Assembly: GCF_010015585.1 (NCBI RefSeq)
Contig: NW_022985073.1
Location: 1,110,923 to 1,174,922 of the forward strand
Reading direction: 5' to 3'
From: Eremomyces bilateralis CBS 781.70
Lineage: Eukaryota > Ascomycota > Dothideomycetes > Eremomycetales > Eremomycetaceae
Length of the DNA: 64,000 bases
The notes below the pieces were generated by a model. The model did not search any database and was not told the origin of the DNA. It worked only from the letters and a program-made list of their open reading frames with translations. Each line of letters opens with the position of its first letter. The stretch's first letter is position 1. A program made the position numbers and the translations under genes. Below are positions 7,649 through 12,061 of this stretch, one piece after another.

Positions 7649-9075
7649 ATGAGCGCCCCACAGGCCAACGAGGCGGAGAAGAATATCGAGATATGGAAGG
7701 TCAAGAAGCTCATCAAGAGGCTTGAGTCTGCTCGTGGTAACGGCACCTCCATGATCTCGCTCATTATCCGTAAGTTCTTGCATCCCTTGGCAGAGCGTGG
7801 GGATGCTGGTCGCTAACGGAGTTCTTATAGCTCCCAAGGATCAAGTCTCACGAGCGTCGAAGATGTTGGCTGAAGAATTTGTACGTGCAACTCCTGCCTG
7901 GTGCCCTGGAATATCGGATCGACTGACAGCTCGGTCAGGGTACCGCCTCCAACATCAAATCTCGTGTCAACCGTCTCTCGGTTCTCTCCGCCATCACAAG
8001 TACCCAGCAGCGCCTGAAGCTGTATTCCAAAGTCCCTCCGAATGGACTAGTCGTCTACTGTGGTGAAATCATCACCTCCGAAGGAAAAGAGCGCAAGATC
8101 AACATCGACTTCGAACCTTTCAAGCCGATCAATACGTCTTTGTACCTATGCGACAACAAGTTTCATACCGAGGCTCTTTCCGAGCTTCTTGAATCTGACC
8201 AGAAGTTCGGATTCATTATCATGGACGGTAACGGAGCTTTGTTCGGAACTCTCAGCGGCAATACGCGCGACATCGTCCACAAGTTCTCCGTCGATCTTCC
8301 GAAGAAGCATGGTCGTGGTGGTCAGTCCGCCCTGCGTTTCGCGCGTCTTCGAGAGGAGAAACGTCACAATTACGTCCGAAAAGTGGCAGAATTGGCCGTC
8401 CAAAACTTTATCACCAACGATAAGGTCAACGTCGCCGGCCTGATCCTGGCCGGTTCGGCCGACTTCAAAAACGACTTGAACCAATCGGACCTGTTCGATG
8501 GGCGTCTGCAAGCGAAAGTCATCAAGATCGTGGATGTTTCATATGGTGGCGAGAACGGTTTCAATCAAGCCATCGAGCTGTCCTCGGAGACTCTCTCCAA
8601 CGTCAAGTTCATTCAAGAGAAGAAGCTCATCAACAAGTACTTCGATGAGATTTCCCAAGACTCTGGGAAGGTTTGCTACGGTATCGATGATACCCTCAAG
8701 GCCCTCGAACTAGGCGCCGCTGACATCTTGATCGTCTTCGAAAACTTGGAAGTGACTCGTTGGACGCTCAAGAGCAGCCAGGGAAGCGAGATCATCCTCC
8801 ACACCACCAAGCAACAAGAGAAAGGCGACCGTTCCCAATTTATGGACAAGGACACCGGGCAAGAGATGGAAATCATCGAGCAAGGATCGTTCCTTGAATG
8901 GCTTGCGGAACACTACCGCGACTTCGGCGCCAACCTCGAGTTCGTCTCCGACCGAAGCTCCGAGGGCAACCAGTTCGTCAAAGGCTTCGGTGGCATCGGC
9001 GCCATCTTGCGCTACAACGTCAATTTCGAACAGCTAGCCGATTTCAGTGACGAAGATGAATTTTATGACGACTGA
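7649..9075 (+). CDS. SUP45: Eukaryotic peptide chain release factor eRF1
   Basis: This factor recognises all three stop codons in the ribosomal A site and triggers peptide release together with eRF3. Exons 7649-7769, 7831-7880 and 7939-9075 give 435 aa, the normal length. Domain 1 carries TASNIKS (about residues 59-65) and YLCDNKF (about 124-130), the stop-codon reading motifs. Domain 2 carries [11 protein letters not shown], the catalytic GGQ loop (about 181). Domain 3 follows to an acidic end, DEDEFYDD. All key residues are present. The stop is TGA followed by CGG, and the frame then stays open for 80 more codons (separate entry), which is unusual for a gene whose product sets termination efficiency. 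Confidence 0.98.
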
Positions 9076-9318
9076 CGGTTGGGCGACCTCGCCTACGAAA
9101 GCGAGGATGCTTTATTCGAGCCAGTGACGCCGGGCCATGCCGCGCCCGAGGTGGATCTGAGGGCATCTCGCGAATTGAACAAGCAGCTCGAGAACGCGGG
9201 TGGAGCTGGCGGGGTGCAGAAGCAGCTCAAGAATGCGGGTGGAGTGGGAGGAGTGCAGAAGCAGGTCGAGAAGGAGGGGAGGGGGCATTTGACGCCGGCA
9301 GCGAGGGCACGGTTGTGA
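9073..9318 (+). other. Candidate stop-codon readthrough extension of eRF1
   Basis: The eRF1 TGA at 9073-9075 is followed in the same frame by 80 sense codons (9076-9315) before TGA at 9316-9318. The stop context TGA-CGG matches a leaky context known from plant RNA viruses and alphavirus relatives, which usually have a stem-loop just downstream. Here CCTCGC (9087-9092) can pair with GCGAGG (9101-9106). The peptide is acidic then basic, holds an in-frame tandem duplication (AGGVQKQ twice), and ends RARL, a PTS1-like C-terminus. Readthrough is inferred; a fortuitously open 3' UTR in GC-rich DNA remains possible. Confidence 0.5.
9087..9106 (+). promoter_or_regulatory. Predicted hairpin after the eRF1 stop
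   Basis: A perfect 6-bp GC-rich stem (9087-9092 with 9101-9106) closes an 8-nt loop. It begins 12 nt after the TGA, close to the spacing seen for readthrough-stimulating stem-loops. The stem is short, so it could also be chance. Confidence 0.35.
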
Positions 9319-10488
9319 AGTGATTCGCATATATGCTACGGGGATCGTTTGAATGGTCAGTAGGAGTTTCTTCTAGCTAATCTACCCACGCGGCTAACAA
9401 TCGTAGGACGTTAAACGAGCGCCGAAAATATTGCGCAACATCAAATTTGCAGCCTGCAGCTCTATCGGTGCCCTCCGATAATCTGTCACATCATGTTTTT
9501 GGAGGGAGCAGCTTCGCCAGCATGATGCCGGATTGACAAGCCGCGGCATGCGTTGACGTCCCACGGGATTTCGCCATTTACCGCAGCTTCATGGCGGAGG
9601 TCCTCGGATCCGTGCTACCATGATCCGACAGGAGGGTTCCAAACTTGGCTGGAGTATCGATGCCGCGCAAGTCGAGGCAAGGGCACCTAAGGATTTCAAA
9701 GACGGAATCTCCAACTCACTCTTTTGGGTCTCCTTTGTACCAGTCATCCTTTCCATGGCTTATATCAAATTGCAAACCAGTTCATGTCTGCCGAACTTTC
9801 TCTATGTGAAACTCTAGCCGGTCATTTCATCTAGGTGTGGAAGTCAATTAACCAAGCCCTTTTATCGGACATGCCATTTTCAGCCCTTAGGTCTGTATAA
9901 CCTGGCATGGCTCTTTTCCTGACACCTCTTAGCGTCCCAAGGCAAAACGAGGTTTGGTATGGCTCCAATGACTGCTGCAACAACAGCGGTGTCTCTACGA
10001 TGAGATTTAGACATTATTCGAACACTTCCAAACACTTCCAACGGTTCGATCTGCTATATTACTCCTTATTTTTAATTCCTCTCACGGAGTGGCTCCCGCT
10101 ATCCCTGTTCCAGGTCGATGTCTATCTTAGCCGAACGTCGGCCAGCAAAGGTTTCACAACGTTAAACTCGACCACAACATGTCCGTTTCCTTCCCATTTA
10201 ATGTATCCGTACACTGCGCAGTAATCTATGCGGATTTTCTGCTAGTGTATGATATGAAAGAAGTTGGATTTCTGTTTTCACATTCACTGTAATGGATGCA
10301 GCGGCTCCAGCTGGTGTCTCGGGTTTGGACGTTCTTTCTTGTTTCTTGGGATGCCACTGCAACTGGCGACGAAGTCCAACACTACTCTACAACTTCTTAG
10401 ACTCCAGCTCCTAAACGACGTAATTGCTGCACGATATTGTCTACGTCCAGTTTAATTCATTTCATAGTTATCTAAGTCCTCAAGCAAA
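9319..10488. other. 1.2-kb intergenic region
   Basis: This region runs from the end of the eRF1 extension to a decayed amidohydrolase. No coding motif, RNA gene or repeat was recognised; short ORFs have no recognisable sequence. Confidence 0.5.
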
Positions 10489-12061
10489 ATGGTGCTCAAG
10501 CCGAATAGTTGTGTCTTATATCAGAACGGAGTCATCATAACTTGCAACAAGAGGCGAGAAATATTCCTCGATGGGACTATTCTTGTGGAGGACGATCGAA
10601 TCGTCGCCATTGGAAAGTGGGATTTAGTTAAAACCCCTTCAAGTATGCAAAATGATTGCGAAATGATTGCGAAGTTAAGCTCTCCTGCTTTATACGTCAA
10701 TTCATTGACTCAAACACAGTACCATTCATGGTGGTGGATCTTCAAGAAATGGTCGTCGTTCCAGGTCTAATCAATACGCATGCTCATGTGGCGCACTCCA
10801 CCCTACGTGGGCTATTTAACCATTCCGACACTCGACCCCGGCAATTGCCAGGACTTCTTGCCACTGGAGTCCAGTTTCGAGGGAGATGATGGCTACATTG
10901 CCGCCTCGCTCACGATAGCCAAGATGATGAAGAGCGGAACAACCTGTTTCTTGGAGCCCATGCTGATGTACCGGACGAGGTCTTGACAATGTCATCCGAG
11001 CCGTCGGGGAGTCGAGCATCAGGACATGTCTGGTGAGTAAAACCTAGTTGATAGCCTAGGAGTGGATCTGATTCAATTAGGGAAGACTGGTCAGGGTTCC
11101 AGTGAGGAACGCGGAGATGAGCCTCGCAGATCCAGGAGAACAGGATGCCCGTAGAGTTACAATCCGGACTGTTGTGTACGACCACGGACGACATAACAAG
11201 TCATTCAATGGATGCGTCCACATATGGATTAGTGCCAGTACCCCGTCAGAGCCCTCCCAAGTCCATTTACCGTATGCAAGTATAGGTTGGAGGTGCCAAG
11301 AGAATGGCATCGGGATGACAATGCATTGCACTGAAACTCCAAGTGACCTTCAAATATTCAAGGAACACTATAAGAAATCGCCCATGCAATTCTGCGAGTC
11401 GGAATACATCGCCGGACCGAGGACAGTTCTCGCGCACATGGCTCATCTTGACCTCGACGTGGATCTAGATATTCTCCGCGATACGGAGACAAGCGTCTCG
11501 CATAGTCTGGCCAGCGACCTCAAGTTCAGCAACGGCACTGCTCCAGTTGTTGAGATGTTGAACAAAGGAGTCAACGTTGCTCTTGGCACGGGCGCTCCCT
11601 ATAACGACACATATGACATGTTCCGAGGGATGCAAGTCACAGCCATGCTCCATGCTGGGCAGATTCGATCATGGGGGGTCCTTATGATGGTTACGGTCTT
11701 TGGCGCACGGGCTCTCAGACTCGAGAACGATATCGGGAGCCGCGAAGTTGGCAAGAAAGCGGACTTCGTCGCCATCTCCAACAAAGGGCTACATTGCGCT
11801 CCATTCGATGCTACACTGTGCTTCGAAGGGGGTCTTGATCCAGTCACAGTGGTCGTTCATAGCTGCACAGGGAGAGACATCCAGCGAGTGGTTGTGGACG
11901 GAAAGACTCTCGTCCAGAACGGCAAACTGGTTTATATGGATGAGGGGCGAATTTGCGAAGCCGCAAGGCAAGCGGGTCGGGGGGTGAAGAATAGGTCAGG
12001 GGTTCTCTCCTCTAAGCACAACTGCTGCTTTGCTTTAGAGCCCATCCCCTCGCGTTGCTGA
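10489..12061 (+). pseudogene. Decayed amidohydrolase (chlorohydrolase/deaminase-like)
   Basis: The source family is metal-dependent amidohydrolases acting on small N-heterocycles (TrzN/AtzA or MTA/SAH deaminase type). A first exon 10489-10642 (VEDDRIVAIGKWD) splices at 10643-10719 to the metal-binding strand VVVPGLINTHAH. The frame then shifts before ESSFEGDDGYIAASLTIAKM, again after EPMLMYR, and later the frame MTMHCTETPSDL / VLAHMAHLD / GVNVALGT follows. The conserved GTDGAP is here GTGAP, so the metal-binding Asp codon is missing, and the segment before FGARALRLENDIGS is shortened. At least two frame breaks plus the lost ligand argue for a dead gene. Family assignment is firm, substrate unknown. 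Confidence 0.75.

What the first reader, a model, noticed from the sequence alone, without database searches (positions are those of the whole stretch)
9073..9318. eRF1 stop codon may be programmed for readthrough
The termination factor gene ends TGA-CGG, a leaky context that in several plant and animal RNA viruses works with a nearby stem-loop. In the same frame 80 codons follow without a stop, and a 6-bp GC stem (9087-9092 with 9101-9106) starts 12 nt downstream. If real, low eRF1 would raise readthrough of its own message, a self-sensing circuit. A readthrough/NMD loop for eRF1 is known in plants, but I know of none in fungi. GC-rich DNA makes an 80-codon open tail by chance not negligible.
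Basis: partly seen in the sequence, partly recalled or inferred. Interest (0 to 1): 0.85.

Follow-up and report, generated by a model that had tools for sequence, protein, structure and literature searches.

The report
Leaky stop codon of fungal eRF1
The gene for the protein that ends protein synthesis in this fungus seems to carry a leaky stop signal and a hidden coding tail, probably the self-sensing control loop already described for the same gene in a bread mould and in plants.

Summary
In detail: eRF1 (7649-9075) ends TGA-CGG, 80 in-frame codons follow to TGA 9316-9318, and the 6-bp stem exists. Openness alone is ordinary (6 of 86 reading frames; 700 of 5000 shuffles), but codon usage in the tail is coding-like (3 of 5000 shuffles reach it). 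Of 120 listed eRF1s, 13 carry an extension. Those tails resemble one another; the window tail resembles them in an anchored test (6 of 4212 decoys, itself included), not in a blind profile test (rank 99). Shifted-frame readings of relatives keep a C after the stop and traces of the hairpin. A candidate 3'UTR intron (9356-9406), weakly supported, lies 280 nt after the first stop and 37 after the second, the geometry by which readthrough would spare the mRNA from decay. Most likely a new member of that circuit. Possibly new: a tail peptide kept across ascomycete classes. No DNA of relatives, RNA or ribosome data were available.

The parts
7649..9075 (+). eRF1 gene: exons 7649-7769, 7831-7880, 7939-9075; introns 7770-7830 and 7881-7938; 435 codons plus TGA
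   Evidence: Sequence; start and exon joins set by eye to match relatives' proteins; Pfam eRF1 domains 2 and 3 in the last exon
9073..9078 (+). UGA-CGG, type II leaky stop context
   Evidence: type II motif as described in PMC3542737, passages seen
9087..9106 (+). hairpin CCUCGC / GCGAGG with 8-nt loop, first base 12 nt after the stop
   Evidence: shifted-frame relatives keep PR..RG at the matching place in 4 of 4 +1 readings long enough to show it
9076..9315 (+). in-frame tail of 80 codons, coding-like, with resemblance to extensions of other ascomycete eRF1s
   Evidence: negative blind test
9316..9318 (+). second in-frame stop (TGA)
9356..9406 (+). candidate 3'UTR intron: GTCAGT, branch CTAAC at 9394, TAG; 51 nt; 37 nt after the second stop and 280 nt after the first
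   Evidence: donor statistics; whole-genome pattern counts give no support

Best explanation
The eRF1 stop is a conserved leaky stop that works as a gauge of eRF1 level. With enough eRF1, ribosomes stop at UGA 9073-9075; the exon junction left by the 3'UTR intron 9356-9406 lies 280 nt downstream, so the mRNA is a target of nonsense-mediated decay. With little eRF1, more ribosomes read UGA-CGG (perhaps helped by the hairpin), translate the 80-codon tail and stop at 9316-9318, 37 nt before the junction, inside the roughly 50-nt limit (recalled), so the mRNA escapes decay and eRF1 recovers. Shown by sequence: leaky context, coding-like tail, NMD and EJC genes. Supported but not proven: tail homology, hairpin conservation, the 3'UTR intron. 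Inferred: readthrough itself, its dependence on dose, and decay.
For: UGA-CGG is a type II readthrough context, often with a stem-loop from about 8 nt downstream (PMC3542737, passages). The tail is coding-like in its own frame (3 of 5000 shuffles as high; other five frames -0.20 to 0.03). Tails of relatives resemble those of other groups (leave-one-group-out: 0 to 4 of 702 decoys reach the score, 8 tails tested), and the window tail's summed score is reached by 6 of 4212 post-stop decoys, itself being one, and by 1 of 329 acidic decoys. The strongest match is Lasiodiplodia P0002, ESEVASPEIATPG against ESEDALFEPVTPG (6 of 4212); P0002 is also, tied with unnamed P0012, the nearest eRF1 of those listed (91.3%). 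In 15 of 15 +1 readings the base after TRA is C; 5 of 5 +2 readings give TGA then C or T (the +1 set was found by the string RLT, which requires C, but none of the 31 unclear proteins contains RL). PR..RG, the trace of both hairpin arms, is in 4 of 4 +1 readings long enough and in the window; it follows 3 of 5870 open TGA sites of the genome sample, the window's own site fitting the pattern. The one GTNNGT...CTRAY...YAG candidate in 9076-10480 is 9356-9406; GTNNGT donors precede acceptor-like sites 60 times against 15 on the control side. Mago, UPF1 and UPF3 families are over cut-off in this genome. The same circuit is reported for Neurospora (title only) and Arabidopsis (PMC11062462, passage).
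Against: A blind profile of relatives' tails ranks the window tail 99th of 2021 sequences, and two sub-profiles rank it 139th and 140th, one of them below a shuffled copy. In one search, 7 of 12 relatives showed no pairwise similarity to it (178 to 798 of 1012 decoys as good); the groups P0046, P0049 and P0078 add little (2273, 1365 and 403 of 4212), and 85 of 5000 shuffles of its own first 36 residues reach the summed score. No protein matched the tail region at E<=1 or the tail alone at E<=10. Near the stop, peptide and hairpin conservation cannot be told apart. GTCAGT is a minor donor: 4 against 1 in 264 kb, this candidate being one of the 4; genome-wide GTCAGT..CTAAC..TAG occurs 52 times, against 133 for the tool's own backward-read control and 69 for a CATAC variant. 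No RNA or ribosome data.
Confidence: 0.65

Rival explanations
1. Chance: an ordinary UGA-C stop followed by a GC-rich stretch that happens to be open; termination is normal.
For: 80 open codons are not rare here (6 of 86; 700 of 5000 shuffles); 9 of 86 comparable stretches end TGA-C and 2 of 86 TGA-CGG, this one included; blind profile negative.
Against: Coding-like codon usage (3 of 5000), anchored similarity (6 of 4212, itself included), extensions in 13 of 120 listed relatives (a list ranked by a score that includes the tail), published Neurospora precedent (title).
Confidence: 0.19
2. The tail is an alternative C-terminus reached mainly by splicing round the stop, as the gene models of some relatives imply; in this species the tail is a remnant after loss of the intron before the stop.
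For: About 67 of 120 listed relatives read D-G or S-G into what looks like a phase-1 intron just before the stop. Models of Lasiodiplodia, Diplodia, Geoglossaceae and Emergomyces seem to join the tail without the stop.
Against: Those are gene predictions, possibly artefacts, and their DNA was not seen. In the window no such intron is present; the available donor GTGACG at 9047 and acceptor at 9124 leave the CTGAC branch-like site at 9072 about 50 nt from the acceptor. The tail still scores as coding.
Confidence: 0.12
3. Readthrough makes an eRF1 form sent to peroxisomes, as recalled for UGA-CUA readthrough of metabolic enzymes in fungi.
For: The window tail ends ARL and two related models (P0002, P0010) end SRL, fitting the recalled PTS1 consensus. 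PMC4207609 (title and two passages) reports readthrough at UGA-CUA and dual localization of metabolic enzymes.
Against: Only 2 of 13 extensions in relatives end PTS1-like; the context is CGG, not CUA; no peroxisomal role of eRF1 is known to me.
Confidence: 0.03

Closest known systems
eRF1 autoregulation by readthrough and 3'UTR-intron NMD in Neurospora crassa (Kurilla et al. 2020, FEBS Lett., 10.1002/1873-3468.13918; title seen, content recalled)
   Same: Same gene, filamentous ascomycete, readthrough at its stop and a 3'UTR intron
   Different: Whether the Neurospora tail peptide, hairpin or stop-adjacent intron is described there could not be read; here the intron and the readthrough are predictions
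Plant eRF1 readthrough/NMD circuit (Nyiko et al. 2017, not held; described in PMC11062462, passage)
   Same: Readthrough protects the mRNA from NMD set off by its 3'UTR, which holds an intron far downstream of the stop
   Different: Distant lineage; tail homology with plants not tested
Type II (UGA-CGG / UGA-CUA plus stem-loop) readthrough signals of RNA viruses (PMC3542737, passages)
   Same: UGA-CGG and a downstream stem-loop
   Different: Cellular gene; compact 6-bp stem starting 12 nt after the stop, not an extended stem from about 8 nt
Fungal UGA-CUA readthrough and dual localization of metabolic enzymes (PMC4207609, title and passages)
   Same: UGA-C readthrough in fungi giving a C-terminal extension
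   Different: Other context, other genes, no conserved PTS1 here

Membership tests
eRF1 readthrough/NMD autoregulatory circuit | leaky context at the eRF1 stop | tested here: met
   UGA-CGG; C after the stop in 15 of 15 +1 readings of relatives
eRF1 readthrough/NMD autoregulatory circuit | in-frame open tail to a second stop | tested here: met
   80 codons with coding-like usage
eRF1 readthrough/NMD autoregulatory circuit | 3'UTR intron more than about 50 nt after the first stop, cleared by readthrough | tested here: inconclusive
   Candidate 9356-9406, 280 and 37 nt from the stops; minor donor, no genome-wide excess
eRF1 readthrough/NMD autoregulatory circuit | NMD and EJC factors in the genome | tested here: met
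   Mago, UPF1 and UPF3 families over cut-off (one Mago and one UPF3 piece contain a stop, perhaps at exon ends); UPF2, Y14 and eIF4A3 not searched
eRF1 readthrough/NMD autoregulatory circuit | readthrough and mRNA stability depend on eRF1 dose | not testable with these tools
   No expression data or bench work
Type II readthrough signal | UGA followed by CGG or CUA | tested here: met
Type II readthrough signal | 3' stem-loop | tested here: inconclusive
   6-bp stem at +12; z -1.52; 57 of 1496 TGAC sites as stable; PR..RG trace in 4 of 4 long +1 readings; no covariation test possible
PTS1 readthrough isoform | conserved PTS1 at the end of the extension | tested here: not met
   2 of 13 extensions in relatives end SRL, the window ends ARL, the other 11 do not

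The most novel reading that the evidence does not exclude
The extended eRF1 itself matters: filamentous ascomycetes keep a hidden C-terminal peptide (pattern LA..(S/R)ED ... E(I/P) ... LTA.R) reachable in different lineages either by readthrough of UGA-CGG or by splicing round the stop, so that the rare isoform, and not just the act of readthrough, has been selected.
Probability: 0.3. Interest if true: 0.7.

Novelty: new member of a known kind. Interest (0 to 1): 0.42.

Why it matters
It would extend the eRF1 self-sensing loop to a further fungal lineage and give a sequence signature to look for across ascomycetes. If the tail peptide is under selection, it also opens the question of what a long-tailed termination factor does.

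Tried and rejected
Protein search with the tail region of eRF1+tail (192 candidates, none at E<=1) and with the tail alone (13 candidates, none at E<=10). Search for DNA of relatives with alignment A1: one archaeal locus in genome contigs and none in viral contigs (one scan each, one of eight viral scans used), so dN/dS and covariation could not be done. Search of the window's frames for the C-terminal NK.PA.Q.L.L.HGK motif shared by P0005 and P0046: no match on the + strand, two unrelated string matches on the - strand. Peroxisomal targeting rejected as main function (3 of 14 ends PTS1-like, window included). Rfam: one match, 23.3 bits against a gathering score of 50. Pfam: no domain in the 80-codon tail. 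Whether W at the stop place in P0046 and P0005 is TGG or TGA read as W could not be settled. My CATAC control is poor, being the reverse complement of a donor (GTATG).

Rows dropped: the relatives are the best 120 of 7996 by a score that includes the tail, so 13 of 120 is no estimate of frequency. Classes are mine; the extension class was named by hand, and unclear P0081 and P0118 may be further +2 readings. One search used 12 of the 13 relatives with extensions (P0093, with a short unlike end, left out). One search used 10 of 13 (P0005, P0063, P0093 out). One search used 8 of 13 (also P0007 and P0010, near-copies, out). In some searches the tails were cut by hand to their first 20 to 40 residues. 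The decoy sets were drawn from the same genome and hold the window tail itself. The tests were made one after another, and 6 of 4212 is not corrected for that.

Full report
What is there. The window is fungal; it lies in an assembly of 26.6 Mb in 62 contigs. eRF1 runs 7649-9075 on the + strand with introns 7770-7830 and 7881-7938 (sequence; start and joins set by eye to match relatives' proteins). It ends GAC-GAC-TGA-CGG. The same frame then stays open for 80 codons to TGA 9316-9318. Of the relatives listed, the nearest eRF1 by identity over the aligned body is that of Lasiodiplodia theobromae (P0002), 91.3%, tied with unnamed P0012; this hints at a dothideomycete (class recalled) but does not prove it.

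Is it more than chance. The open length is not: of 86 open stretches of at least 250 codons in 264 kb of this genome, 6 have a tail of 80 codons or more, this one included, and 700 of 5000 dinucleotide shuffles of the tail stay open. Codon usage is: the tail scores 0.079 bits per codon (eRF1 exon 0.102; the other five frames -0.20, -0.18, 0.03, -0.10 and -0.19), and 3 of 5000 shuffles reach that. Among 40 tails of at least 20 codons it ranks third; the two above it have 44 and 28 codons. A 39-nt repeat, a multiple of three, fills part of the tail (9181-9272).

Relatives. The search with eRF1 plus tail listed the best 120 of 7996 proteins, by a score that includes the tail. I classed them: 37 end at the normal place, 13 carry an extension, 15 run past the stop in the +1 frame, 5 in the +2 frame, 18 run through an in-frame intron to the normal stop, 31 stop in an intron or are unclear, and 1 (P0004) had no recognisable core. 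About 67 read D-G or S-G into what looks like a phase-1 intron (G|GT...AG|AC TGA) just before the stop; the window lacks this intron. Extensions in Lasiodiplodia, Diplodia, five Geoglossaceae proteins, Emergomyces, Agyrium and the unnamed P0046 share a loose pattern, (S/R)ED...E(I/P)...LTA.R. Each of the eight tested resembles the other groups more than nearly all decoys (0 to 4 of 702). The window tail does so too in the anchored test (6 of 4212, itself being one; 1 of 329 acidic decoys), carried by P0002 (6 of 4212) and the Geoglossaceae (33 of 4212), hardly by P0046, P0078 and P0049. It is less clear against shuffles of itself (85 of 5000). A blind profile does not pick it out (rank 99 of 2021; 139 and 140 for two sub-profiles), and pairwise it matches 5 of 12 relatives better than about 97% of decoys and the other 7 not at all. 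I read this as probable, not certain, homology.

Stop context and hairpin in relatives. From proteins that read the region in shifted frames one can infer bases. In 15 of 15 +1 readings the stop is TRA followed by C (10 CNG, 4 CNT, 1 CNA); in 5 of 5 +2 readings it is TGA, if a stop, followed by C or T. Since the +1 set was found by the string RLT, C is partly built in; none of the 31 unclear proteins contains RL. In the 4 +1 readings long enough (P0068, P0070, P0075, P0117) PR..RG stands where the window has PR...RG, the footprint of both stem arms; 3 of 5870 open TGA sites in the genome sample have such a pattern, the window's own site fitting it. The arms coincide with the peptide motif LA...(S/R)ED, so hairpin and peptide cannot be separated there.

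The 3'UTR. Between the first stop and 10480 one GTNNGT-CTRAY-YAG candidate intron exists: 9356-9406, 51 nt, branch CTAAC; looser donors at 9347 and 9360 share its acceptor and another loose candidate starts at 9843. In 264 kb, GTNNGT donors occur 60 times before acceptor-like sites and 15 times on the control side; GTCAGT itself 4 against 1, this site being one of the 4. Genome-wide, GTCAGT..CTAAC..TAG occurs 52 times, the tool's backward-read control 133 times and a CATAC variant 69 times; CATAC is the reverse complement of a donor, so that control is poor, but these counts give no support. If the intron is real, the first stop lies 280 nt and the second 37 nt before the junction. Under the recalled 50-nt rule normal termination would leave the mRNA open to decay and readthrough would rescue it. 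Mago, UPF1 and UPF3 are encoded.

What it is. The anatomy fits the eRF1 autoregulatory circuit. PMC11062462 describes it for Arabidopsis (passage). The reference list of PMC10578600 names Kurilla et al. [quoted passage not shown] That paper is not held; from memory, its abstract proposes similar circuits in many fungi. UGA-CGG as a type II context, with a stem-loop from about 8 nt, is in PMC3542737 (passages).

What may be new. A tail peptide kept across ascomycete classes, and gene models that seem to reach it by splicing round the stop, are not in any passage I saw. My nine paper searches cover only open-licence papers, so this is no claim that they are unpublished.

Odds. On checking the calls I lowered the main confidence from 0.7 to 0.65, and raised the chance and splicing rivals a little, because the decoy counts include the window tail itself and the tool's own control for the intron pattern exceeds the pattern.

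Noticed in passing
window 9181-9272: A 39-nt tandem repeat (2.4 copies, 84% matches) lies inside the tail and keeps its frame (KQLENAGGAGGVQ / KQLKNAGGVGGVQ).
   Followed up: partly
window 9307-9315; P0002, P0010: The tail ends ARL and two eRF1 models (Lasiodiplodia, Diplodia) end SRL, PTS1-like by the recalled consensus; the other 11 extensions do not.
   Followed up: partly
P0005, P0046: Two metagenomic eRF1s have W at the stop place and tails of about 139 and 112 residues that share a C-terminal NK.PA.Q.L.L.HGK motif not found on the window's + strand; TGG or TGA read as W is unsettled.
   Followed up: partly
eRF1 of many relatives, e.g. P0003, P0008, P0025: A phase-1 intron seems to sit one base into the last sense codon, directly before the stop, in about 67 of 120 listed relatives; it is absent in the window.
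   Followed up: partly
window 10489-12061: ORFs 10489-10770 and 11102-12061, in part resembling an amidohydrolase by eye, lie downstream on the same strand; whether they form one gene was not examined.
   Followed up: no
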